The position numbers were made by a program, and so were the translations under genes. 64,000 nucleotides of DNA. It comes from an uncultured Opitutales bacterium (GTDB lineage: Bacteria > Verrucomicrobiota > Verrucomicrobiia > Opitutales > UBA953). Below, piece by piece: positions 1-64,000 of this stretch. The stretch is from NCBI GenBank assembly GCA_934675585.1, contig CAKUQY010000001.1:1-64000 (forward strand). Reading direction: 5' to 3'. The notes under the pieces were generated by a model, which was given only the letters and a program-made list of their open reading frames with translations, did no database searches and was not told the origin of the DNA. Each line of letters opens with the position of its first letter. The first letter of the stretch is position 1.

Positions 1-72
1 CAACGCAACTGTTAAAAAATTATATTCAAAAACAAATAATTAACTTTTATGCTTGCTTTTATCACAATTAAC

Positions 73-325
73 TACGGGAAAATTAAAGGAAACTAAGAAT
101 TTTTGTTTGTCGCCGAGGAAAGGTGAATTTTTCTCACGCAGATCTCGCAGATTGTGCAAATTTTATGGGAGGAGCGGCATCTTGCCGCTCCATTTTTGTT
201 ATTTTTTTTCGCAAACTCAAAGCGCCAACGGCGCGACTTATTTTACAAGCCCTAGGTAGCAAATAAATAAAAATTAGCCCAGAAAGCGCGACTCTCGCCA
301 CAAACACAAATCCCGCGGGAACGGG
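73..325. repeat. Dispersed intergenic repeat R1, inverted copy of 55030-55300
   Basis: This stretch matches the reverse complement of about 55030-55300 over most of its length. It holds a perfect small hairpin (GGAGCGGCAT cttgc CGCTCC region near 171-192) and blocks of the type AGATCTCGCAGATT. The only open frame (53-259) is matched by the same frame in the other copy, so it reflects repeat conservation and not a gene. Function unknown. The rest of 1-700 holds no convincing gene; 520-570 resembles 6985-7040 and 54820-54870. Confidence 0.7.
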
Positions 326-616
326 ACAATTTCAAAAGCGCTTCGTGAAAAGTGCGCGTTGCGCGATGAAAGCGCCTGCGGCGAAAAGGTTTTTTTGGGG
401 GGGCGTGGAACGCGCAATACGAATAACCGTGGGTTTTAACCCGCGGGAAAACAAATAACGACGCGCCTGTAAGGCGCAACTTCTCCGCGGGAACGGCAGG
501 CGCGGGAACAAGAAAAAAAAAGAATTTAAGAGCACCTACTCGCGTTTGCTCGCTAAAGAAAACAAAGAGAGTTTTTGATTTTTTAATCGAGAAAACAGAT
601 TTTTTAAATTTTGTGC

Positions 617-645
617 TTGCGTTTTTTTTTTTTGAATTTTAGAAT
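617..645 (+). promoter_or_regulatory. Promoter with poly-T spacer, PEP-CTERM gene 1
   Basis: TTGCGT (617-622) and TAGAAT (640-645) are 17 bp apart, a sigma-70-type arrangement. The spacer is mainly a run of 12 T. The same pattern lies upstream of the genes at 8528, 36135 (minus) and 54508 (minus). The start codon is 57 bp downstream. A change in the T run would change the spacer length. Confidence 0.6.
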
Positions 646-701
646 TTTTGTAGTTCTAAAAAATAACATTCAACAATAACCTAAATAAATATACACAAAA
701 T

Positions 702-1442
702 ATGAAAAATATTATTACAATAGCCACGCTCCTCGTTGCGGGAACGGCTTTCGCAAACGCCGACGTGACTACGTGGGACGACAGTCTCCCGAAAAATGTC
801 AGCGGAAAAGCAGTCGCATCGTGGAACGTCTCGTCTTCCGGTTTGACGTGGACCTCCGGCGTTGCGGAAAGCGTTATCTTCACAATCGACTATTCGAGCA
901 TCGATTTGTCGAAAAGTTATGCTCTCTTCTCGATCAAGGATTCCACTTACAACGGACTCACTTCCGTCGGGATTAAGGGCGGGAACGTTTTCCTCGAAAA
1001 TTGGAACGACAACACACCGACGGCGACGAGTGCGCTGTCGACTTTTGCCAGCGCCAAAAATTTGACTTTCGTCGTCTCTCGTTCGAGCAGCAACGACATG
1101 AGCCTTGCCGTTTACAAGGACGGGAGTTTTGATATGGCGGCGGCATCCTTGACCGGGAAAACCAATCAGTCCTTTAGAGGAAAAACGTGGTCGTCGCTTA
1201 ATTTCGGAGGAACGACGGACAGTTCATATTTCCAAAACGTCAACAACGTGATGCCGTCGAATGAGAATGCGGCAGAATTCAAATTGCTCGGCGCGGGCTA
1301 CACGGTCAATGCCGTTGCGACGACTGCCGAGCTCGAGAACTATTACTCCGCCGTCGTTCCCGAGCCGTCGGCGTTCGGTCTGTTGGCGGGATTGGGTGCG
1401 TTGGCGTTGGTTGGCGCGCGTCGCCGCCGTTCCCGCAAATAA
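702..1442 (+). CDS. PEP-CTERM sorted surface protein
   Basis: The 246-residue protein is probably exported and anchored or processed by an exosortase-type system. It has an N-terminal signal peptide (about residues 1-20, hydrophobic core ending in an ANA-type cleavage site). Its C terminus is canonical: VPEPSAFG, a hydrophobic helix, then ARRRRSRK. The middle is Ser/Thr/Asn-rich with no family I recognise and is probably beta-rich. The promoter with the poly-T spacer lies at 617-645, and a terminator with the iterated motif follows the stop. The 3' flank (1441-1640) is shared with the flank of the gene at 53810-54508. No exosortase gene is in this window. Function of the core is unknown. Confidence 0.85.
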   Translation: MKNIITIATLLVAGTAFANADVTTWDDSLPKNVSGKAVASWNVSSSGLTWTSGVAESVIFTIDYSSIDLSKSYALFSIKDSTYNGLTSVGIKGGNVFLENWNDNTPTATSALSTFASAKNLTFVVSRSSSNDMSLAVYKDGSFDMAAASLTGKTNQSFRGKTWSSLNFGGTTDSSYFQNVNNVMPSNENAAEFKLLGAGYTVNAVATTAELENYYSAVVPEPSAFGLLAGLGALALVGARRRRSRK

Positions 1443-1640
1443 GATTTTTTTCATATTGTTTTGGCGTTCCCGTGGGCTTGCTCGCGGGAATGTTTTTTTA
1501 CACCTATTGCGAGTAGCTTACGCTCGCTCACTAACGTTCGCGGGGATGTGCGGGAACGGTTTTTTTCGACTACGAATAAACGCTAATTTACGCGAAGAAA
1601 AATTTCAAGAGCGCTTCGCGAAAAGCGCGTTCCCGCGGGC
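1441..1640. repeat. Dispersed repeat R2 downstream of PEP-CTERM gene 1
   Basis: This is an inverted match to 53640-53805 and to parts of 55725-55900 and 54960-55045. Shared blocks include a segment reading GAGTAGCTTACGCTCGCTC and one reading CTACGAATAAACGCTAATTT. In both main copies it begins right after a PEP-CTERM-type gene, so it seems to travel with these genes. Confidence 0.7.
1465..1499 (+). terminator. Rho-independent terminator built on the iterated motif
   Basis: CGTTCCCG (1465-1472) pairs with CGGGAATG (1485-1492), followed by seven T. One arm is a copy of the iterated motif. Confidence 0.7.
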
Positions 1641-1701
1641 TTTAAAGCGCAATGTTTTCTTGCGGCTTCGCGCGTTTTATTTTAGAATAAATTTCAAATA
1701 A

Positions 1702-4158
<2,457 letters not shown>

Positions 4159-4182
4159 TCACTCACAACGGAGAAAATTACG

Positions 4183-5961
4183 ATGAATAAAAATTTGAAA
4201 TTCACTGTTCCCGCGATTCTTGCGGGTTTGGCTTTGGCGGTTTTTACGACAAACTGCGTCGCCATTGAAACCTGCAACAGCGAAAAATGCGTTCCCGCAA
4301 AAACGGTTCACGCCGCATTAGAAAAAACCGAAACCGCCGACGCGGTCGTCATCTCGGGAACGGGATTTTCCGCAACTTTTTCAAAGAAAACGGGAACGCT
4401 CGACGCGCTGGCTTACGGTGGCAAAAAAATCATCGTTGACGGCAACGGCCCAAAGCTCAACGCTTTTCGCGCCATCGTCAACAACGACGGTTGGGCTTAC
4501 GGCAAATGGTTCCGCGACGGTCTTTTTGATATGAAGCACCAAGTGCTCGGCGAACCTTCGGTCGCGATCAACGCCAACGGCACGGCAACGCTTTCGTTCG
4601 TCGTCCGCTCGCAAGGCAAAAACGAGGGCACGCTTCACGGCGACCCGCTGATTCAATACGGTAGCTCGACGAACGGCATTCCGACAAAAATCACGACTGG
4701 CCGCGAACTCGGCGAAAACGATTTGGCGTTCACGACGCACCAAATCTGGACCATTTACCAAGATGGCTCGATCGAGCTCGCCGCAAACATCACTTCCAAT
4801 AAACCTGATACGGACCTCCCGCGCCTCGGCTACACGATGGACGTTCCCGCGAACTTTTCACAGTTCACCTATTACGGACGTGGCCCACAAGAAAATTACA
4901 ACGACCGCGAATCGGGCGCGTTTGTCGGCATTTACAGCGCTCCCGTCGCTAAAATGATGACCAATTACACCAAGCCGCAAGAAATGGGCAACCACGAAGA
5001 CGTGCGCTGGTGCGCGTTGACGGACGCTGACGGGAACGGCGCGGTTTTCGTCGCAGGGAACGGCACTTTCTCCGCGCAAGCGTTGCCGGTGAAAGCGCTC
5101 GATTTGCTGTTCGCGTCGAATCCGTTCAAGCTCGACGAAAAAATCGCAAATTCGCAGGCGACCGTGCTCAATCTTGACGTCGGCGTTCGCGGGCTCGGTG
5201 GCGCAAGTTGCGGTCCCGACACAGAGCGCAAAGACAAGATTTTTGCCGCGCCGACCGATTTCGGCTTCATCATTCGCCCAGCATCCGCAAAAGCAGATTT
5301 GAGCAAAATCGCCAACGTTTCGCCCGCGGGCATCGTGCCGATTTCGATTACGCGCAACGCGGCGGGAGCGGTCGCCATCAATTCTCGCAAGCCCGGAGCC
5401 GAGATTTTCGTTTCGGTGAACGGCGCTCCCGCGAAAAAATACACGGAAACGATTCCGTTCAAAAACGGCGGAACAATCGCGGCATTCTTCCCCGAATCAA
5501 AAAATATCAAAACAGAAATCGCGTTCCCGAAAATCGAAAAAGTGCGCACGGCTGTTATTTTCGCGAACTCTGAAAACGGCGGTAGCGAAGTTGCGGCGAA
5601 TTTGACCGACAACGACACTTCGACGCTCTGGCACACGGCTTATTCCGTGACGCAGGCGGACTATCCGCACTGGGTCGATTTTGACATCGGCGAAGTCAAA
5701 AAAATCAAAGGCGTAACTTACCTGCCACGTCAGGACGGAAGCCCGAACGGCGACGTTAAAAGCTACGAAATCTTTGTCAGCGCCGACGGGAAAAACTGGG
5801 GCGAGCCAGTCGCAAAGGGCAATTTCAAAAACGACAAAAGCGAAAAGAAAGTTCTCTTCGCCGCGCCGCTCGACGCTCGCTACGTGCGTTTCCGCGCGCT
5901 GTCTTCGCAAAACGGACAAATCTACGCCTCAGGCGCTGAATTCTCCGTCCTCGAAAACTAA
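4183..5961 (+). CDS. Secreted beta-galactosidase small chain with F5/8C (discoidin) domain
   Basis: Carries the LacZ domain-5 (beta-gal small chain) region that completes the active site of the large chain. The signal peptide covers about residues 1-27. The domain-5 fold covers about 50-360, with YYGRGPQENYNDR, PQEMGNHEDVRW and GVRGLGGASCGPD. A linker follows, and a C-terminal galactose-binding-like F5/8 type C domain covers about 455-592 (DNDTSTLWHTAY, HWVDFDIG, ARYVRFRALS). The start is supported by GGAG 11 bp upstream, one of the few clear Shine-Dalgarno sequences in the window, consistent with translational coupling to the large chain. The F5/8C domain suggests glycan or surface attachment. 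It lacks both catalytic glutamates, so it cannot be a lone enzyme. Confidence 0.88.
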   Translation: MNKNLKFTVPAILAGLALAVFTTNCVAIETCNSEKCVPAKTVHAALEKTETADAVVISGTGFSATFSKKTGTLDALAYGGKKIIVDGNGPKLNAFRAIVNNDGWAYGKWFRDGLFDMKHQVLGEPSVAINANGTATLSFVVRSQGKNEGTLHGDPLIQYGSSTNGIPTKITTGRELGENDLAFTTHQIWTIYQDGSIELAANITSNKPDTDLPRLGYTMDVPANFSQFTYYGRGPQENYNDRESGAFVGIYSAPVAKMMTNYTKPQEMGNHEDVRWCALTDADGNGAVFVAGNGTFSAQALPVKALDLLFASNPFKLDEKIANSQATVLNLDVGVRGLGGASCGPDTERKDKIFAAPTDFGFIIRPASAKADLSKIANVSPAGIVPISITRNAAGAVAINSRKPGAEIFVSVNGAPAKKYTETIPFKNGGTIAAFFPESKNIKTEIAFPKIEKVRTAVIFANSENGGSEVAANLTDNDTSTLWHTAYSVTQADYPHWVDFDIGEVKKIKGVTYLPRQDGSPNGDVKSYEIFVSADGKNWGEPVAKGNFKNDKSEKKVLFAAPLDARYVRFRALSSQNGQIYASGAEFSVLEN

Positions 5962-5977
5962 AATTCAAAACCCTCAA

Positions 5978-6017
5978 AAACTCTCGGCAACGCGCTCTGT
6001 TCCCGAGAGTTTTTTAT
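5978..6017 (+). terminator. Terminator after the split beta-galactosidase operon
   Basis: AAACTCTCGG (5978-5987) pairs with CCGAGAGTTTT (6003-6013), then a T-rich tail. The loop end contains a partial iterated motif (TGTTCCCGAG). Confidence 0.75.
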
Positions 6018-6040
6018 TTTAACCCCAAAAAATTCGCACA

Positions 6041-6224
6041 ATGAAAAACACTTTCGCAACAGCCGCCGTTTTAATCGCCGCGGGAACGGCTCGGCGAAGT
6101 CGCGGAAAATTCCCGCAAAATTTTCGATTTGTGGACGCATAAGTGTTTCCGCATTTCAAAAAGCGTTCCCGCGCTCAAGCTCGAAATCAACGCGCACGGT
6201 GTCCGTCTGCTGAGATTTGAATAA
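6041..6224 (+). pseudogene. Remnant of a GH27-type alpha-galactosidase
   Basis: An ATG with a signal-peptide start (MKNTFATAAVLIAAGT) runs into a different frame that ends KLEINAHGVRLLRFE and a stop. DLWTHK...HGVRLLRF is the usual C-terminal strand pattern of GH27 alpha-galactosidases (a DLW(T) segment, then AHGV-LLR). Only the two ends remain, so nearly all the catalytic domain has been deleted. The junction lies at a copy of the iterated motif. Family assignment rests on this short C-terminal pattern and on the position beside a galactosidase operon. Confidence 0.55.
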
Positions 6225-6241
6225 TTTTGCTTTTTTCGCCC

Positions 6242-7187: not shown

Positions 7188-8204
7188 TTACGCCAATTTC
7201 CAGCCGATTTGCGTTCCCGCGAAAACGGGAACGACTTGTTCGCCGTTGGGTAAATCGACCGTTGCGGGAACGTTCATCGGCTCGTTGACGAGCGTAATCG
7301 TTTTTTCGGGAATGTTCAGCCCGTAAATTTTGCGCGCGTTATCACTGACAAACGCTTGAAGTTTGTCGAGTGCGTTGTGCTTTGCAAAAAGTTCCGCGAG
7401 CGCGGGTAGCAAAATCGGTCCCGTAAAACTGCCGCCGAGCGCGCCTGCGCTTTCCTTGTTCGTTTTTAGATGCGGTGCGGAATCGCTGCCGAACATAATT
7501 TTCGCGTTCCCGCCAAACACCGCGGCTTGAATCGCCTCGCGGTCGCGCGGCAACTTAACAATCGGCTTGCAGAAAAGATGCGGATTCAGTTTGCCGCCCG
7601 ACAAATCATCGAGCGTAAACAGCAAATGATGTAGCGTTACCGTCGCGTAAAGATTTTCAAATTCGTCGAGCAGACCAAGCGTCCGCGCGTCCGAAATGTG
7701 CTCCATCACAATTTTCAGCCGCGGGAACGCCGCCGCCAATCGCCTATAAACGGGCAAAAATTCTGCCTCTCGCTCGAGCACAAAACCGTTGCTTTCGCCG
7801 TGGACCAACAGCGGCACGCCTAAATCCTGCATCGCTTCGAGCGCGGGAACGAGCGCGGAAAAATCGGAAATGCCGTTTTCGGAATTCGTCGTCACGCCCG
7901 CGGGATAAAGCTTCATCGCGAAAAAGCGCGGATTCGCCTTTGCGGCTTCGATGTCTCGCGGCGTTTGGCTTCCCAAAAACAAAGTCATCAACGGGCGAAA
8001 ATCCGTTCCCGCGGCGGATTCGATTTTTGCGCAATAAGCGTCCATCGCGTCGAGCGTATCGATTGCGGGAACGAGATTCGGCATGACGACCGCGCCCGCG
8101 AACTGCGTTCCCGCGACGTGCGCCGCCATTTGGCACATTTCGCCGTCGCGCAAATGCAGGTGCATATCAAGCGGTGAGTGGAGAGTAAAAGTTTGATTTT
8201 TCAT
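7188..8204 (-). CDS. pyrC: Dihydroorotase
   Basis: Cyclises N-carbamoyl-aspartate to dihydroorotate in pyrimidine synthesis. The 338-residue length fits the E. coli PyrC type. Metal ligands are visible: DMHLHLRDG near residues 13-21, the carboxylated lysine in KLYPAG near 98, HGE near 135, EHISDA near 174 and FGSDSAPH near 246. It is a stand-alone gene, convergent with mntP. The gene holds nine copies of the iterated motif, which encode AGT, VPA, FPR and GGNA in the protein. Confidence 0.95.
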   Translation of the reverse strand: MKNQTFTLHSPLDMHLHLRDGEMCQMAAHVAGTQFAGAVVMPNLVPAIDTLDAMDAYCAKIESAAGTDFRPLMTLFLGSQTPRDIEAAKANPRFFAMKLYPAGVTTNSENGISDFSALVPALEAMQDLGVPLLVHGESNGFVLEREAEFLPVYRRLAAAFPRLKIVMEHISDARTLGLLDEFENLYATVTLHHLLFTLDDLSGGKLNPHLFCKPIVKLPRDREAIQAAVFGGNAKIMFGSDSAPHLKTNKESAGALGGSFTGPILLPALAELFAKHNALDKLQAFVSDNARKIYGLNIPEKTITLVNEPMNVPATVDLPNGEQVVPVFAGTQIGWKLA

Positions 8205-9680: not shown

Positions 9681-9686
9681 TTCCCG

Positions 9687-13410: not shown

Positions 13411-14628
13411 CTATCCTGCCATACGTTGAATAACCGAAATGATCGGCAAGAACATTGCCACAACAATCGTACCAACAATCACAGCCAAGAAAACAATGAG
13501 CAACGGCTCAATAATCGAAGTCAGCGCGCCGACGGCATTGTCCACTTCTTCATCGTAATTGTCAGCCACGCGCGAAAGCATTTCCGGCAATTGACCCGTT
13601 TCTTCGCCGACCTGCACCATCGAACAAACCATCGGCGGGAACACTTTTGATTGTTCCAAAGGCATGTAAAGCGTTTCACCGTCGCGAATGCGATCGTGCA
13701 CTTTTTGCAACGCTTCTTGCAAAACCGGATTCGAAAGCGTTTCCGTCGTGATTTTCATCGATTGCAAAATCGGCACGCCCGAAGCCATCAAAGTACCAAA
13801 CGTGCGCGCAAAACGCGAAACCGCAACAATTTGCAAAAATGAACCAATTTTTGGCGCGCGGAACATAATGCGCCCAAACGTATCTGAAACTTTTTTGATT
13901 TTAAATGCAAATTTAATGCCGAAAATCAGCCCCAAAATCACAAAAATCGTCGCGAACAAGTGCTCCCGCAAAATATTACCGAGCGACATCACGATATCGG
14001 TCAATGCTGGCATTTGGCCACCTTGCGACGCAATCATCGATTGGAACGACGGCACCACAAAAGTCAGCAAAACATAAACAATGACAAACGCCACCGTAAC
14101 AACCACCGTTGGATAAACCATCGCCGATTTTACTTTTTTCTTAATTTTGTCCGCCTTTTCTTGAAATGTTGCCAAACGGTCGAGCACGGTGTCGAGCACG
14201 CCGCCCGCTTCGCCCGCCTTAATCATATTCACATAAAGATGGTCAAACATTTTTGGATATTGCGTAAACGCATCTGAAAGCGAATTACCCGATTGAATTT
14301 GGTCGCAAATATTCGTCAACGCCGTTTTAAAATTGGGATCGCGCTCTTGCTCGCAAAGAATTTGGCACGCGCGCAACAACGGCAAACCCGCTTGCAACAA
14401 CGTCGCCAACTGACGCGTAAAAACCGTCAATTGCTCGCTCGAGATTTTTTTATTATATGCCTGACCCTTTTTCTTGGTAGTTTTTACAAGCCCTGTTTCT
14501 TCAATCGAAGAAACCATCAAACGTTGCGACATCAACTGCGCACGCGCTTGCTCTTCATTTGCGGCCTCAATCGTTCCCGCGAAAGGCTTGCCTGTCGCGT
14601 CAATTGCTTTATATTTAAATTTTGCCAT
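13411..14628 (-). CDS. pilC: Type IV pilus inner-membrane platform protein PilC (GspF family)
   Basis: Membrane platform on which the PilB and PilT motors act. 405 residues, the usual length. It has the N-terminal cytoplasmic region (FKYKAIDATGKPFAGTI), two GspF domains (about 65-190 and 270-395, with RQLATLLQAGLPLLRAC and GTLMASGVPILQSM) and three membrane helices (about 168-190, 215-240, 375-400). Last gene of the cluster pilB, pilT, pilB-like, pilC on the minus strand. No pilin gene is nearby. A GspF of a type II system is a possible alternative, but the adjacent pilT favours pili. Confidence 0.88.
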   Translation of the reverse strand: MAKFKYKAIDATGKPFAGTIEAANEEQARAQLMSQRLMVSSIEETGLVKTTKKKGQAYNKKISSEQLTVFTRQLATLLQAGLPLLRACQILCEQERDPNFKTALTNICDQIQSGNSLSDAFTQYPKMFDHLYVNMIKAGEAGGVLDTVLDRLATFQEKADKIKKKVKSAMVYPTVVVTVAFVIVYVLLTFVVPSFQSMIASQGGQMPALTDIVMSLGNILREHLFATIFVILGLIFGIKFAFKIKKVSDTFGRIMFRAPKIGSFLQIVAVSRFARTFGTLMASGVPILQSMKITTETLSNPVLQEALQKVHDRIRDGETLYMPLEQSKVFPPMVCSMVQVGEETGQLPEMLSRVADNYDEEVDNAVGALTSIIEPLLIVFLAVIVGTIVVAMFLPIISVIQRMAG

Positions 14629-14776: not shown

Positions 14777-16456
14777 TTAGGTATATTTGAGCACTTCTTC
14801 GATCGTCGTGTGGCCGTCGAAAATACAGCGCAAGCCGTCTTGGCGAAGTGTGCGCATGCCGTTTTCGATAGCTTTTTGTTTGAGCACGAGCGTTGGCGCG
14901 CGGTGAGTAATCAAATCGCGAATCGCGTCGTTGATCATCATCAATTCAAACAAACCTTGACGCCCTTTGTAGCCCGAGCGATTACAAACCGAACAGCCGC
15001 GACCGTAATAAAATTGCTTGTCGGCGATTTCGATTGGGTCCACATTGAGCATACTGAGCACGGCTTGGTCGGGCTCGTAAGCCGTGCGACAATTTTTACA
15101 AATGTGGCGCAAAAGTCGTTGACCGAGCACGCCTTCGAGCGATGCCGCAATCAAGAATGGCTCGATTCCCATATCGACAAGACGCGTTACCGCGCCAGGA
15201 GCGTCGTTGGTGTGAAGCGTTGAAAGCACCACGTGACCCGTCAGCGCGGACTGCACCGCGATGCTGCCCGTTTCTTGGTCACGAATTTCGCCCAACATAA
15301 TAATGTCGGGGTCTTGACGCAAGAACGAACGCAACGCCGCCGCAAATGTCAGCCCAACTTGGTGATTGATCTGCACTTGCATAATGCCCTCGATTTCGTA
15401 TTCGACAGGATCTTCCGCCGTCAAAATTTTCACATCAATCGTATTCACTTCGCGCAACGCCGAATAAAGCGTCGTCGTTTTACCCGAACCTGTCGGGCCT
15501 GTTACAATGAAAATGCCGTTTGGACGATTTACAAGCGTGCGAATGCCCGTCATAATTTCGTCTGCCATCGTCAAATTTTCAAGGTCGAGGTTCACCACGC
15601 CTTTGTCCAAAATACGCAACACGACCGATTCGCCAAATTGTGTCGGGAGCGTTGAAACACGCAAATCGATCGCGCGGCCGCCGACGGTGGTTTTAATACG
15701 ACCATCTTGTGGCACGCGTCGTTCTGCGATATTCAGTCCCGACATCACTTTCACGCGCGCGGTAACGGCGTTGGCGAGCGATGCGGGAGGCGGCGTCATT
15801 TCATACAACGCGCCGTCGATACGGTAACGGATGCGGAATTCGCCCTCGAATGGCTCAAAGTGAATATCAGACGCTTTCGCTTTCACCGCTTCTTGCAAAA
15901 CCACATCGACGAAACGAATAATTGGCGCTTGGCTGGCGGAATCGTTGAGCGCTTTTTCGTCGTCGCCCGCGAAATCGAGCCCTGTCAATTCGCCAATCAC
16001 ATTGTCGAGCGAACTATTTAATTCGCCATAATGTTTAACAATCGCGTTGTCGATCAATTGCGGGTCGCCCACCAAAAATTCCACATCGCGATGCAAGATA
16101 AACGATAATTCTTCGCCGATTGAAAAATTGAACGGGTCTTTCGACAAAAAGCTCAATTTGTCGGGTGTCGCTTTCACAGGCAAAATGCCGTATTTGTGCG
16201 CTTGCTCTTGATTGATGAGCTTTAATAAATTAGGATCAATCGATTCGGGAATCTGCGGGAACGCCGCCACGCCCAAATGCTCGGCAATCATCGTCAGCAA
16301 TTCGTCGCGCGTGACATAGCCGTCATCTTCGAGCACGTCGGTGTACGGCTTGCCCGTTTCAATATGTTCTGCCCAAGCCTCATCAAGTTGAGGCTTGGTC
16401 GCCTTGCCAGAGTCGGCAATCAACGTCGTCAAAATTTCACTGTGTTCGTCAAACAT
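14777..16456 (-). CDS. Type IV pilus/type II secretion ATPase (PilB/GspE family), second paralog
   Basis: Hexameric ATPase driving pilin polymerisation. It has an N-terminal MshEN/GspE-II domain (about 1-150) and a C-terminal motor domain. Walker A is [10 protein letters not shown] (about 319), the Asp box is [21 protein letters not shown], the Walker B region is [12 protein letters not shown], the His box is LSTLHTNDA, and a four-cysteine zinc site is formed by CKNC and CSVC. It lies 149 bp from pilC and 44 bp from pilT. A second PilB/GspE-type ATPase is encoded at 17688-19406. One may serve a different filament; the sequence alone does not say which. Confidence 0.85.
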
Positions 16457-16499
16457 AATTTTTAAAAGTTATTTTTATATTCCCGCGGAACAGGTAATT

Positions 16500-17585
16500 T
16501 TAGTAGCCGATTTCGCGGAGTTTTTGGCGCATTTCATCGGGAACTTGCGCGTAGGTGATAGCTTCGCTGGAATCGATGATGCCGTCTGCGACAAGCGAGA
16601 GCAAATGTCCATCGAGCGTGCGCATGCCGATCGCGCCACCAGTTTGAATTTCGGAAGTGATGCGATAAGTTTTGTTATCACGAATGAGCGCGGCTGTCGA
16701 ATCGGTATTGACCATAATTTCATAGCCCGCAACGCGACCGCCACTTTTGCGACGGCAAAGCACTTGCGAAATAACAGCAACGAGCGAGGACGCTAATTGC
16801 ATGCGAATTTGTTCTTTAGTATCTGCCGGGAACGCATCAACAATGCGGTCCACCGTTCGTGCCGCGCCCGTTGTGTGAAGCGTTGCAAAAACCAAGTGTC
16901 CCGTTTCTGCCGCCGAAACCGCAGCGGTAATCGTTTCCAAATCGCGCATTTCGCCGACGAGAATAATATCTGGGTCTTGACGCAAAGCTGCGCGAATCGC
17001 TTCCGAAAAACTACCAACGTCGCGCCCAATTTCACGTTGCGTAACAACCGAGCGTTTGTGGTCGTGAAAATATTCGATTGGGTCTTCAATCGTGATGATG
17101 TGGCGCTCTTCGTTTTCGTTAATCCAATTAAGCATCGATGCGAGCGTAGTCGATTTACCCGAACCCGTTGGGCCCGTCACCAAAATCAAACCGCGTTGGC
17201 GACGAAGCAACGATCTCACTTTGTCCGGAAGTCCCAATTTTTCGAGCGTGAACATATCGTGCGGAATTTGTCGCAAGACGATCCCGTAAGCGTTTTCGTC
17301 GCCGTTCCCGCTGCGTGCTTTAAAACAGCTGACGCGGAAACGCGCTTTGTTGCCAAACGAAAAACCAAAATCGCAGCCGCCCTTGTCTTCCAAGCGTTTC
17401 AAATGATGCTCTGGTGTAATTTCGCGAACAAACGCTTCTGTTTCCTCAGGAGTTAATTGGGGACCGTCAACAGGCAACATGCTGCCCGAAATGCGCAACA
17501 CGGGCGCTTGGTCAACGTGCAAGTGCAAGTCTGACGCATTTTGTTCGACGACTAAATCTAAAAGTTCTGTAAGAGTGTAATTCAT
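16500..17585 (-). CDS. pilT: Pilus retraction ATPase PilT
   Basis: Powers retraction of type IV pili, needed for twitching and for DNA uptake in transformable bacteria. 361 residues. Features in order: N-terminal PAS-like domain ([18 protein letters not shown]), Walker [11 protein letters not shown] (about 134), the [20 protein letters not shown] motif typical of PilT, the His box [11 protein letters not shown], and a C-terminal part with the usual substitute for the PilB zinc site. It sits between the two PilB-type genes, which supports a retractable pilus and not only a secretion system. Confidence 0.93.
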
Positions 17586-17687
17586 AAAGTGGGAGGTGGA
17601 GCGACGGGAACGCGAAATCGCGGGAACGGGATTGGGATTGAGATTTTTTGAATTGGCGGGAACGCGAAAACGATAATTTCAACTTTC

Positions 17688-19406
17688 TTATTCAACGTCA
17701 ATCGTTGTCGAAAGCACTTCTTCGACGGTGGTAATGCCGGCAACGACTTTGCGAATGCCGTCTTCGCGCATCGTGCGCATGCCGAGATCGCGCACTTTGT
17801 GACGCAAATCAACGAGCGTTGCATTTTGGTAAATCATTTCTTGAATTTCTTCATTCACCATAAACAATTCAAACACGCCACGACGACCTTTGTAGCCCGT
17901 GTCATGACATTTTGCGCAGCCCGGTCCCTTGCGGAAATTCGCTTCCGTCAAATCTCCTGCCGTCAAACCAATTGCAATCAATTCTTTTTCAGAAGGCGTG
18001 TAAGGAGCGCCACATTCCGGGCAAATACGACGCACAAGACGTTGAGCCAAAACACCACGCAACGATGCCGAAACCAAGAACGGTTTTACACCCATATCGA
18101 CAAGACGCGGGATCGCGCCGGGAGCGTCATTCGTGTGCAAAGTCGAGAAAACCATGTGGCCCGTCAGCGACGCGTTCACGGCGATTTCTGCCGTTTCCAA
18201 GTCACGAATTTCACCAATCATGATAATGTTTGGCGCTTGACGCAACATCGAACGCAACGCCGACGCAAACGTCATTCCCACTTCACGGCGCACTTGCACT
18301 TGGTTAATGCCCTTCATTTGATATTCGACAGGGTCTTCAACCGTAATAATTTTGCGGTCGGGCTGGTTAATATAATTGAGCGCCGAATAAAGCGTCGTCG
18401 ATTTACCCGAACCTGTTGGACCCGTCACCAAGAAAATGCCGTCCGCGCCCGTGATAATTTTCATGAACACTTCTTGGTCGTCCGAGAAAAATCCGAGTTC
18501 CGGCAAGCCAAGTTTCAGCCCTTCTTTGTCCAAAATACGCATAACGATCGACTCGCCATAAACTGTCGGGAGCACCGACACACGCAAGTCCACCGCCTTG
18601 CTCGCCACTTCAATTTGAATACGTCCGTCTTGCGGAATGCGTTTTTCTGCCAACGAAACATTCGCCATCAGCTTCAAACGCGCCACAATCGACGCTTGCA
18701 AACGCTTGGGCGGATTCTCCACCTCTTGCAAAACGCCGTCAATACGATAACGCACGCGGAAACGTTTTTCCAACGGTTCCATGTGAATATCTGACGCCTT
18801 GCGACGAATCGCCTCTGTAATCAACAAATTCACATAACGAATAATTGGCGCGTCTTCTTCGGAAGCGTTTTTTTCATCGTTCCCGGGAATCGAAACCGTG
18901 GTCCCGTCGCCAAAAATTTCTTGCAACGCCGCGCTGCCCAATTCGCCCGAATTATCATACGCGGTAACAATTGCATCTTTGATTTCGTTAGGCGGTGCCA
19001 ACTGCACGTTGATTTGCACTTTCAGCACGCGCGAAAGTTCATCAACCATATCGGTATTCAACGGGTCGCCCACAACGAGCAAAAGTGCGTTCCCGTCAAG
19101 TTGCAACGGCAAAACATTATTATCTTCTGCCATTTGCTTGCCCACTAATTTGAGCGCTTCGGTCGTGGGGTGTACGTCTTTCAAATCGGGCGCGAGTTCC
19201 ATATCTAACTCGCTCGCCATCAAGCCCGTAATCTCTTTCCACGAAGTATAGCCCTTTTCTACGAGCAAATCCAAAACTTTCGAATCGACCTGATCGGCCA
19301 GCACGCCTTGCCCTTCAACATCTTGGCGCGCAACATCAATAATATCTGGCGTTACAACTTCATGGTCTTGAAGCAACTGAATTACAAAATCGTCAGCAGA
19401 AATCAT
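17688..19406 (-). CDS. pilB: Type IV pilus assembly ATPase PilB
   Basis: Pilus extension motor. 572 residues. It has an N-terminal MshEN domain (about 1-160) and a motor domain with Walker [11 protein letters not shown] (about 336), [45 protein letters not shown] and a zinc site CPEC/CAKC. First gene of the minus-strand pilus cluster. The upstream region (19407-20033) carries a heptad inverted repeat and a 14-C tract but no obvious promoter. Closely related to the gene at 14777-16456, probably by an old duplication. Confidence 0.88.
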
Positions 19407-25866: not shown

Positions 25867-25990
25867 TTGTGCAAAAGTTCGTGCAAAAGTTCGTGCAAAT
25901 TTTTTGCCAAATATTTATGTTCCCCGCGGGAGAAAAAACACGTTCCCGCGACGATTTGCCACGGGAACGCATTTTTGAATTTCGCAGATT

Positions 25991-29415: not shown

Positions 29416-29456
29416 AAAACGCGTTCCCGTAAAATTTTCGCGGGAACGCGTTTTTT
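29416..29456. terminator. Bidirectional terminator formed by an inverted iterated motif pair
   Basis: CGCGTTCCCG (29420-29429) and CGGGAACGCG (29441-29450) form a perfect 10-bp stem with A runs before and T runs after. It separates the convergent aminopeptidase and malate dehydrogenase genes. It is the clearest case of two motif copies used as a terminator. Confidence 0.92.
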
Positions 29457-44885: not shown

Positions 44886-44928
44886 CGCGTTCCCGCGAGA
44901 ATCTCCCACGGGAACGCAATTTTTTTTG
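44886..44928. terminator. Bidirectional terminator built from an inverted iterated motif pair
   Basis: GCGTTCCCG and CGGGAACGC (about 44887-44917) form the stem, with A run before and T run after. Separates the convergent methionine operon and surface-decoration island. The same sequence recurs at 47714-47755. Confidence 0.85.
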
Positions 44929-47567: not shown

Positions 47568-47735
47568 TCTCATAAAAATTATAATAAACTCAAAAAAAAA
47601 CTCGCAAGAGTTTTTTTATAAAAAAGACACAAAACTCTCGCGGGAACGGGAATTTGCGAGAATGAGCAAACAAAAAAGCGGCGCATGTAGATGCGTCGCT
47701 TTTTGAAAAACTGCGTTCCCGTGAGAATCTCCCAC
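47568..47735. repeat. Repeat unit of the surface-decoration island, copy 1
   Basis: About 165 bp nearly identical to 50608-50775, and it leads into a shared terminator. Contains, on the minus strand, a terminator hairpin (AAAGCGACGCAT/ATGCGCCGCTTT), then TTGCGA and TATAAT-like boxes 18 bp apart around a run of nine T (47578-47607). Placed directly upstream of the IspD-like gene. Confidence 0.8.
47578..47607 (-). promoter_or_regulatory. Possible promoter with poly-T spacer, IspD-like operon
   Basis: On the minus strand TTGCGA and TATAAT are 18 bp apart with nine T between. The segment AAAAAAACTC-TTGC-GAGTTTTTTT can alternatively fold as a terminator, so the call is weaker than for the PEP-CTERM promoters. 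Confidence 0.35.
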
Positions 47736-47755
47736 GGGAACGCAATTTTTTTGTA
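47714..47755. terminator. Terminator after licD2
   Basis: Same inverted iterated motif pair as 44886-44928 (GCGTTCCCG/CGGGAACGC), with T and A runs. Confidence 0.85.
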
Positions 47756-53639: not shown

Positions 53640-53805
53640 ATTAGCGTTTATTCGTAGTTGAAAAAATCCCGTTCCCGCCCCTAAACCCGCGAACGTTAGT
53701 GAGCGCGCGTGAGCTACTCGCAAGCGGTGTTAAAAAACTCGTTCCCGCAAAGTTGCCTTCACGGGAACGCCAAAACAATATGAAAAATCTTTAAAGTCCG
53801 TTTTG
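53640..53805. repeat. Dispersed repeat R2 downstream of gene 4
   Basis: Inverse of 1441-1600 and direct copy of 55778-55900; includes CTACTCGCAAGCGGTG. Confidence 0.75.
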
Positions 53806-54614: not shown

Positions 54615-54619
54615 CTAGA

Positions 54620-55920
54620 AAATTATTCCCGTTCCCGCGAGAACGGGAATTTAGTATTTCGCGCGGGAACGCGAAAGTGTTGCGGAGTCGCCAAGTGTTT
54701 CGCGGGAACGCGAAAGAGCGCGGGGACGGAAACGCGGGAGTTTTTTTTCGACAACGAATAAACGCTAATTTACTCGAATTATTTTTTTTGGGTGGGGCGC
54801 GGGAACGGGAACGCAAAAAAGAAATTAAGAGAACCTACTCGCTTCGCTCGTTAAAGAATTTAAAGAAAATTACGATTTTGTTTGGCAGCTTAAACCGCCG
54901 AAACTTAGAAACCTTTGTCCTTCGGGCGAGATTTTTTTCTACGGGAACGCGGGAACGGGAAAGGTTTTTTTTCAACTACGAATAAGCGCCAATTTACGCG
55001 AAGAAAAATTTCAAAAGCGCTTCGCGAAAAGCGCGTTCCCGTGGGATTGGTGTTTGTGGTGAGAGTCGCGCTTTCAGCGCTGATTTTTATTTATTTGCTT
55101 ACCCAGGGCTTGCGCCCTGGGCTAATTCTGTCGCGCCGTTGGCGCTTTGAGTTTGCGAGAAAAAATAACAAAAATGGAGCGGCAAGATGCCGCTCCTCCC
55201 ATAAAATTTGCACAATCTGCGAGATCTGCGCGAGAAAAATTCACCTTTCCGCGGCGACAAACAAAAATTCTTAGCTTCCTTTAATTTTCCCATAGTTGCC
55301 TTAGATGGAAAATTCCCGTTCCCGTGGCGAAGTTTTTTTTATTCACTCCCTTCGGGACTGGTATTATTTTTGTTTTACCCCCACACGCTCGCGTTCGCTC
55401 GCTTTTGTGGGGGTTAGCCATCGCGGGAACGCGTTCCCGCGATTTCAGTGCCTTCGGCACAAGTCAAGTTCCTATTTATTTCTACTAAACCTACGGATTT
55501 TCCATTCCCGTTCCCGCTCGCTCAAAAAAATCTGTGAAATCTGTCAAAAATCTGTTTCATCTGTGTTCAAAAAATCTCGCGCCCCATTCCCGCGTTCCCG
55601 TATTCCCGTGTTCTGTCGCGCTTTCAGCGCTTGGAGTTTGCGAGAAAAAATAACAAAAATGGAGCGGCAAGATGCCGCTCCTCCCATAAAAATCTTTTTG
55701 CCGCAGGAGCTTTGAACGCGGGAACGCGCTTTTCGCGAAGCGCTTTTGAAATTTTTCTTCGCGTAAATTGGTGTTTATTCGTAGTTGAAAAAATCCCGTT
55801 CCCGTTCCCTAAACCCGCGAACCTTAGTGAGCGAGCGTAAGCTACTCGCAATCGGTGTTAAAAAACTCGTTCCCGCAAAGTTGCCTTCGCGGGAACGCAA
55901 AAAATAAATTTGCGGGAACG
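54620..55920. repeat. Gene-free, repeat-rich region
   Basis: Holds several repeat copies: R2-like 54960-55045, R1 55030-55300 (inverse of 73-325), a second R1 part 55612-55695, R2 inverse 55725-55800 and R2 55778-55900. Each R1 copy carries the hairpin with GGAGCGGCAAGATGCCGCTCC. No gene is convincing, despite several short open frames, which match repeats elsewhere. Confidence 0.7.
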
Positions 55921-56745: not shown

Positions 56746-56795
56746 CGAAAAAATCTAAAACTTTTCCCCGTTCCCGAAACTGCGTTCCCGCGAAT

Positions 56796-58148: not shown

Positions 58149-58203
58149 AATCAGCAAAAATTAATGAGATTTATTTTTTTAAGTTAACCACAAATTGCAC
58201 GAA

Positions 58204-61200: not shown

Positions 61201-61344
61201 GCAGCTCACATTAACCGAGGGCGGCGAGATTTGCGGATACTCCTCGACGGAAAGTTTAGTAATGCACAGCGCGCCAGCGATAAAAAGCACTAAACTCACA
61301 ACCGCCGCCAGCCGCGGACGCTCAATAAAAATACGCGAAAACAT
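58204..61344 (-). CDS. RND efflux pump inner-membrane transporter (AcrB/MexB family, HAE1)
   Basis: 1,046 residues. Twelve membrane helices in two halves, with large periplasmic loops. VDDAIVVVENCQSLM contains the paired aspartates of the proton relay, and the second-half lysine lies in the LAAKNAILMIEF segment. FIERPRLAAVVSLVLFIAGA is the typical start. Exports hydrophobic compounds or drugs by proton motive force through the TolC-type channel. Confidence 0.95.
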   Translation of the reverse strand: MFSRIFIERPRLAAVVSLVLFIAGALCITKLSVEEYPQISPPSVNVSCTYTGCSAETVRDVIATQLDSEINGVEDMLYFSSTCTNEGRYSCSITFKTGVNDDFAMVNVQNAIKAAESKLPSEVQRTGVNVRKRSSDMLGVFSFITDGSVMTSMQLNNYVSTTIADAVSRVDGVSSADVMGGDVYSMRIWLDPLRMAGLGVTVDDISSAVNSQNIQAAAGTLGAEQGNEYLQFKINVQGRLKTADEFGDIIIRSSEDGSILRLKDIARVELGSRTYSGRGVCDGKESCGLAIYRNNDSNALETMNRVKAVIEEMSERFPAGVTYVIANDPTRFILVTLNEIVVTIIVALLLVVLVTYVFLQDWRATLVPAIAIPVSLVGTFTFMYLMGYSINVLSMFGLILVIGSLVDDAIVVVENCQSLMVREGLSAKQAALKSMRQITGAIIVTTLVTIACYVPLAFYGGMVGEIYTQFAVTMCIALVLSTVVAMTLSPALCALILRPPAERVPAPFKPFNWFIEKFKDVYLYFVNLLVKRAWLTVVLLVLAVLGIWGIASVVPSSFLPEEDKGMVMMNIELSPGASTVRTQATLERVRERIMKVEGVEGVMMMPGHSMMSGNGEHVAMGFVRLKPWDERTSEETQLSSIVGKLQTGVMDIPEANIIFFTPPAIMGLGAVGGVSAVLCGEGDVDAVELSKIVKNVVAEINSWPTVRRASSSYNADTVQLYLEVDRTKAETLGVPVSSIFSVLQSQLASFYINDFNYEGDAFYVKMQVDKTFRVTQDDIRTILVGNASGEMVPLSAFATIRYMVGPTEIQRFNKLTSADISVQPAAGVSSGEMMQALSEMKLPNGFHFEWKGQSYQERQNQGQLAVIMALAMLFAYLFLVAQYESWTIPMPVMITVIIPILGAFAGLWIMDLSLSVYAQLGMVMLIGLAAKNAILMIEFSKQSHELGYNIHDAALMGASLRFRAVLMTAWSFLFGVFPLVIATGAGAGSRRAIGVTTFSGMLLATVIGIVFAPALYSLFSRMRETVRKANVPEKQLDTPLEFRKYK

Positions 61345-61351
61345 GATTTTT

Positions 61352-61378
61352 AACTGAAAACTGAAAGCTGAAAACTAT
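61352..61378. repeat. Left arm, heptad repeat flanking a four-helix-bundle gene
   Basis: AACTGAA, AACTGAA, AGCTGAA, AACTATA: 7-bp units. It starts 8 bp upstream of the RND pump start codon. Inverse of 61796-61822. Confidence 0.75.
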
Positions 61379-61382
61379 AAAA

Positions 61383-61741
61383 TTAGTTTTCTTGACTAAT
61401 ATTTTTCTTTTTCGTTTTTACACTTGATGAAAGCAATCGAGCAAGTTCTGAACAATCAACTTTTATGGATGAATATTGTTTTTCTGTTAAATACCCTGTT
61501 TCATAAAACAAATCTAACCAATAAGCCGTTTCGTTTGCCTCTTTTAGCGCAATGTTAAATTTACTTAAAAAATCTTTTGCACTTTGCGCATGATAAGCTT
61601 CTGCAACATTTGACCAATACTCGTGCCGCTCCGCAATAATTGTTCTGCAAGTTTGTAAAACTTCTTTTTTTCACAAAGATACTCGTATAATCGAATGATA
61701 CGAATAGCAAATGCCCAAGATTTTTCTTCAATTAATTTCAT
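61383..61741 (-). pseudogene. Four-helix-bundle (S23/IVP-like) gene with a frameshift
   Basis: The first frame reads KSWAFAIRIIRLYEYL, then LAEQLLRSGTSIG. The family continues NVAEAYHAQSAKDFLSKFNI, which is present one frame off, followed by ANETAYWLDLFYETGYLTE. Thus a base is missing near 61605-61612 in a short A run. Intact length would be about 120 residues, the normal size for S23/23S-rRNA intervening-sequence-type proteins. It sits between pump and adaptor genes, bracketed by 7-bp-period inverted repeats, as if the whole 470 bp was inserted. Confidence 0.75.
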
Positions 61742-61795
61742 ATAAAATTTCAACTTTCACCACGTTAATTTTTTACCTTTTAGTTCCTACCAAAA

Positions 61796-61822
61796 ATAGT
61801 TTTCAGTTTTCAGTTATCAGTT
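61796..61822. repeat. Right arm, heptad repeat flanking a four-helix-bundle gene
   Basis: Inverse of the left arm (AACTGAT, AACTGAA, AACTGAA, AACTATT read on the minus strand). It overlaps the end of the adaptor gene and supplies its last codons and stop (ACT GAT AAC TGA). Confidence 0.75.
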
Positions 61823-62892
61823 ACGACCACGTTTACTTTTTTCCCGGGAACGATTTTATGCGTGCCGTCCGTAACAATCCGTTCGCCCGCTTTCAAGCCT
61901 TCCGCAATGAAATAAAGATTTTTCGTTTCGCTCGCCAATTTGATGTTGCGCCGCGCGGGAACGTTGTTTTCATCGAGCACGTAAACATACGGACCCTCGC
62001 TGTCGTAAAGCATCGCCGACGGAATCACCGCGGGAGCGTTCCCGCAATCTTTCAAAACGATCACGGCAACCGTCGAGCCGGGAATCAGCGCGAAATCTTC
62101 GTTTTTAAACGAAACGTAAACCTGCACCGTGTCCGTCGAAGCGTTCGCGGTGTTGTCGATAAAATCGATCGTTCCCGCGAGCGGATATTCCTTGTCGTTC
62201 GCCAAAATCAACGAAATTTTCGCCTGTTTGCGGAACGTTTCCTCGTCGCCAAACAAATCTAAAAAATCGCGATTCGACAACGCAAAGCGCGCGCGAACGG
62301 GATCAAGCTGCACCACCGTCGTCAAAGTTCCGGTTGACGGCGTAACATACGTTCCCACGGGCGCTTTGTTCACGCCGACGCGACCGTCTGACCGAGCGTA
62401 AATGCGCGTGTTTTTCAAATCGTCTTTCGCAACGATCAAATCCGCTTTGGCAGCGGCAAACAACGCTTGGTTTGCTTCGTATTCAGCCAGCGCGGCGTCG
62501 AGTTCGTCCTGCGTCGAAACTTCCTTTTCAAAAAGCTGTTTCGTCCGCTCGTAATTTGCCCGCGAATAACTTGCCTGCGCCTTGTATTGAGCGACTTTCG
62601 CCTCCGCCGATTTTTCCGCCGCAACGTAACGAATATCGTCCAAACGGTAAAGTAGCTGACCTTTTTTCACGTAATCACCTTCCTTAAACGCCACTTCCAG
62701 CAAATCGCCACTCACGCGCGCGGTTACTGGCACTTCCGCCAACGAAACCACGCGTCCGGGATAACGCCGCGCGACGTTCTGCTTTGTCTCGACGACCGTT
62801 CCCGCCGCCACAGTTGCCAGCGCTTCCTGCGCGCTTGCGTGCGCGCAGACCAGAAACGCTCCGAGTAAAAACGAAACAATTTTCAATTTCAT
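61810..62892 (-). CDS. RND efflux periplasmic adaptor (AcrA/MexA family)
   Basis: 360 residues. Signal peptide about 1-21. VTARVSGDLLEVAFKEGDYV is the first lipoyl half, a coiled hairpin covers about 85-150 (QYKAQASYSRANYERTKQLF), NTRIYARSDGRVG is the second lipoyl half, and a beta-barrel with membrane-proximal domain follows. First gene of the efflux operon. Its C terminus was probably altered by the inserted element, since the last residues come from the heptad repeat. Confidence 0.92.
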   Translation of the reverse strand: MKLKIVSFLLGAFLVCAHASAQEALATVAAGTVVETKQNVARRYPGRVVSLAEVPVTARVSGDLLEVAFKEGDYVKKGQLLYRLDDIRYVAAEKSAEAKVAQYKAQASYSRANYERTKQLFEKEVSTQDELDAALAEYEANQALFAAAKADLIVAKDDLKNTRIYARSDGRVGVNKAPVGTYVTPSTGTLTTVVQLDPVRARFALSNRDFLDLFGDEETFRKQAKISLILANDKEYPLAGTIDFIDNTANASTDTVQVYVSFKNEDFALIPGSTVAVIVLKDCGNAPAVIPSAMLYDSEGPYVYVLDENNVPARRNIKLASETKNLYFIAEGLKAGERIVTDGTHKIVPGKKVNVVVTDN

Positions 62893-62945
62893 AAAAATAA
62901 TAGGTTTTTAAAAGTTAAACGCTTTTCAGTTCAAAAAGTTTCAAA

Positions 62946-64000
62946 TTATTTTCGCTTGTCAAAATAGCTCAATGCTTCATCAAGACCGCCCTCGCAGTCG
63001 CGGGAACGCCAAGCCGCCGCAAATATTTTTTTCAATTCTTCATCAATTTTTGTTTTTACGGGAACGCCGCGTTTTTTGGAAATTATCCGCACAACAGCTT
63101 GAAAATCAAAACAAATCGCCGCCAAAATATCGAGCAATAATTTTTTGACATTTTCAGAATTATCATCGTTGCATTCTTCAAATTTAATTTTAAAAAATTG
63201 AGAGCTCAACGCATCGATGCGCGCAAAAACTTTTTCGCATTCTTCCGCGGGAACGTCTTTTATCAAATCGTCTAACGCCGTTTCGGGCGCAAAAAATGCG
63301 CAATGCAGCAAGCTGCGATTTGGAATTTGCTTGCTGAACATACCGTCAATTTCGCCGAGCGCCAGCAACAAATCGACAATTTTTTCAATGGTTTTACGCT
63401 GCGCGGGAACGTCCAAATAAGTTTGCAAACCAATTTTAATATCCGCATTTTGCCCGATCGGCTCATTGACATTCCACGCTGCCGCTCCCGCAAAAACAAT
63501 CGACGGCAAGGCGATTCCAAAACTATTAAAATAACCCTTGTCGCCCCAAGTTGTCAGGAGCGTTCCCGCGGCTTGAAATTTTTTGGCGGCTTTGCAAGCG
63601 CGGCGAATATTGATTTCTGCCGCCGTTTCACGTCCAGAAAACGACAGCCAATTTGACGTTCCCGGCGCGAGCAAAAAATAATGTTTTCTGTCATCGGGAA
63701 GCGCCGCAACCACGCGCGCGCATTGTTCTTCAAACGGATGATTCGGCTCGTAGCCCCAAATCACGGGAACGGTCCTTTCGAGCATTTCGCGCGGGAGCGG
63801 TTCGTCGTTATTTTCTAACAAAACATCACCCCAAAACAAAACCGATTTTTCGTGCGCTTCAGCTTTTTTGATCAAGCGCATCATGTGTTCGACATAAACC
63901 GCGCGCTTGCCCTTTTTTTCGCAAAGATTTTTTGATTTTCCCAAGCCAAGTTCCCACGGCTCGTCCCCGCCAATATTAAACCACGACGAATGAAATTGTG
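62946..64000 (-). CDS. GH20 hexosaminidase, partial (5' end beyond the window)
   Basis: About 351 residues are visible. The in-frame start at 63944 (TTG) is not the real one; the frame continues to the edge and reads SWFNIGGDEPWELG, the GH20 catalytic D-E pair. Downstream parts include VLFWGDVLLEN, VIWGYEPNHPFEEQ, a region with PGTSNWLSFSGR, and an alpha-helical C terminus. This matches a GH20 subgroup with an extended C-terminal helical region. The signal peptide, if any, is outside the window. Confidence 0.75.
   Translation of the reverse strand, partial: QFHSSWFNIGGDEPWELGLGKSKNLCEKKGKRAVYVEHMMRLIKKAEAHEKSVLFWGDVLLENNDEPLPREMLERTVPVIWGYEPNHPFEEQCARVVAALPDDRKHYFLLAPGTSNWLSFSGRETAAEINIRRACKAAKKFQAAGTLLTTWGDKGYFNSFGIALPSIVFAGAAAWNVNEPIGQNADIKIGLQTYLDVPAQRKTIEKIVDLLLALGEIDGMFSKQIPNRSLLHCAFFAPETALDDLIKDVPAEECEKVFARIDALSSQFFKIKFEECNDDNSENVKKLLLDILAAICFDFQAVVRIISKKRGVPVKTKIDEELKKIFAAAWRSRDCEGGLDEALSYFDKRK

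What the first reader, a model, noticed from the sequence alone, without database searches (positions are those of the whole stretch)
1..64000. Very highly iterated 9-bp motif GCGGGAACG throughout the sequence
The core GGGAACG (and inverse CGTTCCC) appears far above chance: about 8 occurrences are expected in 64 kb on both strands for a random 7-mer, but nine are in the 1-kb pyrC gene alone, and most genes carry several. It is present in both orientations, in all reading frames, inside genes and between them, and it shapes proteins (AGT, VPA, GNA, FPR, RER). Such abundance is known for DNA uptake sequences of Neisseria and Pasteurellaceae and for HIP1 in cyanobacteria. I know of no such motif described for this lineage. 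Function is unproven: uptake, genome marking, repair or methylation are options.
Basis: partly seen in the sequence, partly recalled or inferred. Interest (0 to 1): 0.92.

Follow-up and report, generated by a model that had tools for sequence, protein, structure and literature searches.

The report
Gut bacteria's genome-wide 8-letter DNA tag
A small group of gut bacteria (Verrucomicrobiota) carries the 8-letter DNA word CGGGAACG thousands of times per genome and keeps it intact against mutation; it looks like an independently evolved "take up my own kind's DNA" label, but that function is not yet proven.

Summary
CGGGAACG occurs 287 times in the window (both strands), against 4-5 from order-1/2 Markov models; in genes 194, against 9.8±3.2 with synonymous codons shuffled. 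The conserved unit is 8 bases (97.4% identity, background 91.9%), not the 9-mer named. Six relatives (Candidatus Spyradosoma group, Opitutales) hold 5,192-6,550 copies in 1.6-2.1 Mb; outside this clade none searched comes near (79 family, 132 order, 387 phylum genomes). Copies arise mainly by substitution and are kept; one-mismatch versions are not. Two clade members appear to have lost the force. Orientation ignores replication direction. Inverted pairs look like terminators. No methyltransferase group of four families tested is in all six high-copy genomes. ComEC and pilus motor genes are present, but also in motif-free kin. This is largely the profile of DUS/USS uptake sequences, not of HIP1, Chi or KOPS. 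Best reading: an independent uptake-signal system. Uptake, receptor and transformability are untested.

The parts
1..64000 (.). 287 copies of CGGGAACG/CGTTCCCG spread over the whole window (mean gap 222 bases, largest gap 1514)
7188..8204 (-). pyrC (dihydroorotase), nine copies in 1 kb: an example of heavy load inside a gene
25941..25969 (.). inverted pair CGTTCCCG-13-CGGGAACG with A-tract left and T-tract right: terminator-like
29422..29448 (.). inverted pair with A/T tracts between the convergent aminopeptidase and malate dehydrogenase genes: terminator-like
44888..44916 (.). inverted pair with A/T tracts: terminator-like
47714..47742 (.). inverted pair with A/T tracts: terminator-like
53740..53769 (.). 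inverted pair of motif copies with an A-tract on the left only
55868..55897 (.). inverted pair of motif copies with an A-tract on the left only
13411..14628 (-). PilC/GspF-type pilus inner-membrane protein (one motif copy)
14777..16456 (-). PilB/GspE-type ATPase (one motif copy)
16500..17585 (-). PilT-family retraction ATPase: machinery an uptake system would use
17688..19406 (-). second PilB/GspE-type ATPase

Best explanation
CGGGAACG is the core of an uptake-signal-type sequence of the Candidatus Spyradosoma group (Opitutales). Proposed mechanism: a type IV pilus with a sequence-reading minor pilin binds DNA carrying the 8-mer, PilT pulls it in, ComEC carries it across the inner membrane, and recombination replaces the resident allele. 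Alleles with the word are taken up and fixed more often, so copies accumulate by point substitution wherever genes tolerate them, in both orientations, and mutated copies are replaced by intact ones. Some inverted pairs were co-opted as transcription terminators. Shown here: abundance, exact 8-bp maintenance, origin mainly by substitution, clade restriction in the samples searched, two clade members with decayed copies, terminator-like pairs, presence of pilus motor genes and ComEC. Inferred: uptake, receptor, transformation, drive.
For: Non-palindromic 8-mer at about 2,700-3,900 per Mb in six relatives. In 171 kb aligned between G004 and G006, exact copies are retained 1030 of 1195, one-mismatch neighbours 57.9% of 1189 and 60 composition-matched words 58.0% of 2584; one-mismatch copies face an exact partner in 9.7% of cases against 0.3-2.6% for eight control words. 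Footprint exactly 8 bp, flanks at or slightly below background. Orientation 619 to 669 over 420 kb whose GC skew is negative in 20 of 21 bins. Denser in intergenic DNA. Neighbouring copies 10-19 bases apart: 80 inverted, 28 oppositely inverted, 64 tandem, p 5e-10; 12 of 13 (window) and 21 of 41 (G004) terminator-like hairpins contain it. Two motif-poor stretches of G004 hold restriction or defence genes: 13 against 44 and 9 against 19 copies expected, though they were picked because their gaps were large. ComEC and PilT in all 8 clade genomes, 7-11 pilin-motif matches each. A small pilin strongly matched in 8 of 8 clade genomes (118 bits or more) and only weakly in 8 outgroups (26 bits or less). 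These resemble traits printed for DUS/USS (passages of PMC2397512, PMC1939737, PMC3630211, PMC13020248).
Against: No uptake or transformation data exist here. ComEC and PilT-like genes are also in motif-free relatives (ComEC in 73 of 79 family genomes; PilT in all 8 outgroups searched), and the decayed genomes G002 and G008 keep ComEC, PilT and the small pilin, so no machinery loss found here explains the decay. Small insertions differing between G004 and G006 are not poorer in the word (19 in 5.7 kb, 15 in 4.7 kb, that is 3.35 and 3.21 per kb, against 3.20 in shared DNA), unlike the printed absence in recently acquired neisserial genes. Prophage-like contigs carry it at 1.6-1.7 per kb. The small pilin's narrow range is weak evidence: another pilin of the clade gave a similarly short list (23 and 36 relatives, few named). 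Its fold match to FimU is not significant (E 0.098).
Confidence: 0.6

Rival explanations
1. HIP1-like: an orphan DNA methyltransferase or repair process marks the word and biases mismatch repair toward it, with no uptake role.
For: Density, exactness and spread resemble HIP1 (300-2700 per million in most cyanobacteria outside group C1; PMC4390886 section 2.2). HIP loss or replacement in single lineages is described there.
Against: The HIPs described are palindromes; this word is not. C5 methyltransferases (PF00145) were not found in G003 and G007; PF02384 and PF07669 not in G001. PF01555 is found in all six high-copy genomes, but the only match of G004 and the only match of G005 are unrelated (29% over 103 residues), so no one PF01555 group is in all six. 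One-mismatch copies facing an exact partner are spread over positions, mostly transitions. Draft genomes may lack genes; other methyltransferase families were not tested.
Confidence: 0.12
2. Chi- or KOPS-like site read inside the cell by a recombination nuclease or translocase, marking self DNA.
For: Exact GC-rich word; also on prophage-like contigs (26 and 18 copies against 1.2 and 0.8 expected), as Chi is on some phages (recalled).
Against: No orientation bias along 420 kb of G004 with steady GC skew (619 to 669); only this one contig was tested. Density is above that of known Chi and KOPS sites of similar length (recalled).
Confidence: 0.1
3. Binding site of an abundant chromosome-organising or regulatory protein, kept by selection at each site.
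For: Conservation of the exact word.
Against: Near-random spacing (CV 1.12 and 1.03); copies sit in coding sequence of most window genes as well as between genes; copies fell far below the other members' counts in two members of the clade.
Confidence: 0.1
4. Transcription terminators explain the word.
For: Inverted pairs with A/T tracts at gene ends.
Against: Pairs are a minority: 123 inverted pairs up to 20 bases apart in the samples of window, G001, G004, G006 and G007, which hold about 3,500 copies; 204 of 287 window copies lie in genes.
Confidence: 0.03
5. Composition, codon bias or mutation bias alone.
For: None found.
Against: Markov and codon-shuffle nulls; one-mismatch words are not favoured; samples of 48% to 63% GC share the same word.
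Confidence: 0.02

Closest known systems
DNA uptake sequence (DUS) of Neisseriaceae
   Same: Short non-palindromic word in thousands of copies, more conserved than its surroundings, present in terminators, with pilus and ComEC genes in the genome; flank preferences vary between species (passages of PMC3630211, PMC2397512, PMC13020248).
   Different: Unrelated sequence, different phylum, strict 8-bp footprint, higher counts per Mb (the highest DUS density reported in PMC3630211 is 5918 in 2.4 Mb, of a longer word), no demonstrated uptake or receptor.
Uptake signal sequence (USS) of Pasteurellaceae
   Same: Strict core plus weaker flanks, no chromosome orientation bias, present in terminators (passages of PMC1939737, PMC13020248).
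   Different: Unrelated sequence. The downstream T preference here is weak and may come partly from terminators (inference). The window's 9-mer count (209 in 64 kb) is about four times the density of the H. influenzae 9-mer (1471 per genome; genome size 1.83 Mb recalled).
HIP1 (GCGATCGC) and alternate HIPs of cyanobacteria
   Same: Density, exactness, lineage-specific loss (PMC4390886: abstract, section 2.2 and first part of the Discussion seen).
   Different: HIPs are palindromes matched by methyltransferases; here no palindrome and no methyltransferase group of four families in all six high-copy genomes.
Chi and KOPS (recalled)
   Same: Short, GC-rich, genome-wide.
   Different: No orientation bias on the contig tested.

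Membership tests
DUS/USS uptake sequences | Short non-palindromic word, genome-wide excess | tested here: met
[quoted passage not shown]
   619 to 669 on 420 kb of one G004 contig; whole-genome counts are of contigs in arbitrary direction and say little
DUS/USS uptake sequences | Exact copies conserved above surroundings, sited in permissive DNA | tested here: met
   conservation; permissive siting: denser between genes, flanks 0.86-0.93 identical around a 0.919 background, a small difference
DUS/USS uptake sequences | Inverted pairs used in terminators | tested here: met
   predicted hairpins only, no RNA data
DUS/USS uptake sequences | Scarce in recently acquired DNA | tested here: inconclusive
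   two restriction/defence stretches poor, chosen for their gaps; small strain-specific insertions not poor
DUS/USS uptake sequences | Competence machinery (type IV pilus, ComEC) present | tested here: met
   DprA and secretin not searched; also present in motif-free relatives
DUS/USS uptake sequences | Sequence-specific surface receptor (minor pilin) | not testable with these tools
   candidate pilins only
DUS/USS uptake sequences | Word raises DNA uptake or transformation | not testable with these tools
   needs cultures
HIP1-type iterated palindromes | Palindromic word | tested here: not met
   CGGGAACG differs from its complement CGTTCCCG
HIP1-type iterated palindromes | Matching methyltransferase in every high-copy genome | tested here: not met
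   PF00145, PF02384, PF07669 each missing from at least one; PF01555 present in all six but not as one group; other families not tested, genomes are drafts
Chi/KOPS | Orientation bias along replication arms | tested here: not met
   one 420-kb stretch

The most novel reading that the evidence does not exclude
The word is a genome-wide self-mark of a kind not yet described: neither an uptake signal nor a methylation target, but read inside the cell (for example by a nuclease or repair system), spreading to resident prophages too, and switched off in two members of the clade.
Probability: 0.15. Interest if true: 0.95.

Novelty: new variant of a known kind. Interest (0 to 1): 0.83.

Why it matters
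The papers seen here, in passages, treat DUS and USS as traits of Neisseriaceae and Pasteurellaceae. A third, independent case in another phylum, with an unrelated word, very high density and two apparent natural losses, would show that uptake-signal drive evolves repeatedly and would give a new set of species for finding receptors and for separating drive from benefit. About 3.6% of the bases of the window sit inside one 8-letter word, so this force shapes proteins and terminators as well.

Tried and rejected
Rejected: composition, codon and dinucleotide effects; insertion of a mobile repeat, since in the closest pair (G004, G006) copies missing in the partner are mostly same-length substitutions with indels at 0.9-1.5% against 0.9% for controls (in several distant pairs the indel share was above control, for example 12.1% against 8.1% for G004 to G001 and 15.3% against 5.8% for G004 to G008); Chi/KOPS by orientation; terminators as sole cause; methyltransferase pairing in four families.

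Led nowhere or misled: the over-represented CACCACCAACCC of G008 looked like a replacement word but is mostly clustered repeat arrays. A small pilin seemed missing in G002 but a direct search found it. A type II secretion-like pseudopilin cluster, kept in G002 and G008, fell outside the seven pilin matches of each high-copy genome; it gives no mechanism. The second pilin model was poor (mean pLDDT 55.6) and was not searched. The small pilin's best solved-structure match, FimU, is not significant. A first codon-shuffle run had two of 44 genes out of frame; it was repeated correctly.

Literature: searches gave listings of which no title or abstract shown reports such a word in Verrucomicrobiota; the one paper holding both 'uptake sequence' and 'Verrucomicrobi' was not opened. 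A letter search for the 8-mer returned 762 papers, 20 listed, none opened, so absence from print is not established.
Full report
WHAT IS THERE. The window holds 287 copies of CGGGAACG counting both strands, against 4.1 and 4.6 from order-1 and order-2 Markov models; order 3 gives 25.4, but its 4-mer counts already contain the motif. It is the most over-represented 8-mer; of 9-mers, GCGGGAACG has 209. A null that keeps every protein and the pooled codon usage gives 9.8 +- 3.2 copies in 44 genes against 194 seen. All 24 one-mismatch words together number 208. All six reading positions are used, and intergenic DNA is denser than coding DNA (8.84 against 3.74 per kb in the window; 4.48 against 2.92 in 420 kb of relative G004, longest-ORF genes). 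Genes for PilB, PilC, AroF and AspS carry few copies (0.6-1.6 per kb), some others 7-12 per kb (names); conservation of each gene was not measured.

WHOSE GENOME. No whole genome is held for the window. Its aspartyl-tRNA synthetase is 94% identical to an Opitutales MAG (RUI087) and 87-88% to seven other MAGs, one named Candidatus Spyradosoma merdigallinarum. These nine form one group in a protein tree (support 87/92) and in a DNA tree (100/100).

DISTRIBUTION. Genome-wide counts, both strands: G001 5322 in 1.6 Mb, G003 5434 in 2.0, G004 5192 in 1.7, G005 5274 in 1.8, G006 6550 in 2.1, G007 6161 in 1.6; the word read backwards 75-105 times. Two clade members are intermediate: G002 1362 in 2.1 Mb, G008 546 in 1.9 Mb. 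Of 79 family genomes, six are high, these two intermediate and 71 at background. Of 132 order genomes drawn, four are high, all of this clade; of 387 phylum genomes drawn, three, again of this clade. Elsewhere the highest I read off is about 250 per Mb (983 in 4.0 Mb).

MAINTENANCE. In high-high pairs, copies survive more often than CGNNNNCG controls: G004 to G006 91% of 194 against 60% of 936, G004 to G007 75% of 47 against 29% of 287, window to G004 11 of 18 against 19% of 142. With 171 kb aligned between G004 and G006 (91.9% identical), exact words are retained 1030 of 1195, one-mismatch words 57.9% of 1189 and composition-matched words 58.0% of 2584. One-mismatch words face an exact copy in 9.7% of cases, against 0.3-2.6% for eight control words. 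The conserved stretch is exactly 8 bases, 97.4% identical, with the four bases on either side at 86-93%. So the force sees the whole word, and copies come and go mainly by substitution.

TWO LOSSES. Copies of G004 are no better kept than controls in G002 (19.8% of 106 against 22.5% of 715) and G008 (10.2% of 59 against 13.2% of 395), yet copies still present there coincide with G004's (21 of 29 and 6 of 10). In the outgroup G009 none of 16 G004 copies is intact. Trees of AspS, PilB-PilT-PilB and ComEC (the last without the window) place G002 and G008 inside the clade among high-copy lineages, but their positions differ between genes and some forks are weak. The simplest reading is an ancestral state rich in the word and two losses; separate rises from a lower ancestral level are not excluded. 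The machinery lost was not identified: ComEC, PilT and a small pilin remain.

ORIENTATION, PAIRS, ISLANDS. Over 420 kb of one G004 contig, with GC skew negative in 20 of 21 bins, the orientations number 619 and 669, and spacing is close to random. In 1.10 Mb, neighbouring copies 10-19 bases apart are inverted (CGTTCCCG..CGGGAACG) 80 times, oppositely inverted 28, tandem 64. Of 28 intergenic inverted pairs placed in the window and that contig, 23 touch a gene's 3' end and 16 have an A-tract before and a T-tract after. A simple hairpin-plus-T search found terminators at 13 of 34 transcription-unit ends in the window, 12 with the word, and at 41 of 209 in the G004 contig, 21 with it. A 14-kb stretch of G004 with RexA-like, HsdR N-terminal, Mrr and methyltransferase-fragment genes has 13 copies against 44 expected, and a stretch with a type I methyltransferase gene 9 against 19; both were picked for their gaps. 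Against this, small strain-specific insertions are not poor in it.

PHAGE. Two IMG/VR contigs with terminases 99-100% alike (L362 = L430, and L431), bearing terminase, portal and tail genes, carry 18 and 26 copies (order-2 expectation 0.8 and 1.2); 21 distant relatives carry none, at 30-35% GC. L431 also holds a FabG-like gene and frames without a phage match, so it may be an integrated prophage. Prophages thus seem to gain the word, which fits residence in the chromosome but also an intracellular self-mark.

MECHANISM. The traits resemble those printed for DUS and USS: high conservation in permissive places, no chromosome orientation bias, presence in terminators, lineage dialects (passages of PMC2397512, PMC1939737, PMC13020248, PMC3630211). 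A HIP1-type process is less likely: no palindrome, and no methyltransferase group of four families is in all six high-copy genomes. The machinery an uptake system needs is at least partly present: pilus ATPases and PilC in the window, PilT and ComEC in all eight relatives, seven pilin-motif matches in each high-copy genome; DprA and the secretin were not searched. One pilin of about 131-143 residues is strongly matched in all eight clade genomes and only weakly in eight outgroups (best 26 bits; one, in G144, spans residues 10-127 at 30% identity). It has 23 relatives at E 0.001 among 5.8 billion proteins, three named, all Opitutae or Opitutales; but a second pilin gave a similarly short list of 36, one named, and the fold match to FimU is not significant. 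The receptor is a guess.

VERDICT. Real, strong, lineage-specific, and not seen in the listings and passages searched. It behaves like an uptake sequence on most sequence-level tests run here, with mixed results for acquired DNA and no explanation yet for the two losses; membership needs the uptake assay. The densest DUS in the paper seen is 5918 in 2.4 Mb, a longer word, so the comparison of density is approximate.

Noticed in passing
L008, L088-L093, L140-L149 (genome G008): Clustered copies of CACCACCAACCC, often 17-19 bases apart: 159 copies of ACCAACCC in 169 kb (about 940 per Mb), against 0-25 per Mb in seven other samples.
   Followed up: partly
L428, L429 (G002, G008): A second, type II secretion-like cluster of four pseudopilins is present in the two motif-poor clade members; the seven pilin matches of each motif-rich genome leave no second cluster of four.
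   Followed up: partly
window 55102-55146: Acido-Lenti-1 RNA, score 43.3 over the cut-off 37.
   Followed up: no
window 1744-5961: LacZ-type beta-galactosidase split over two adjacent open frames.
   Followed up: no
L168:1995-14026 (G004): Defence-type island with RexA-like, HsdR N-terminal, Mrr and ankyrin-Schlafen genes, poor in the word.
   Followed up: partly
L431: Compact phage-like gene block (terminase, portal, tail) beside a FabG-like gene, carrying the host word.
   Followed up: partly
window 14777-19406: PilB-PilT-PilB here are more like those of motif-poor G002 and G008 than those of motif-rich G003-G007, so these pilus motor genes do not track the word.
   Followed up: yes
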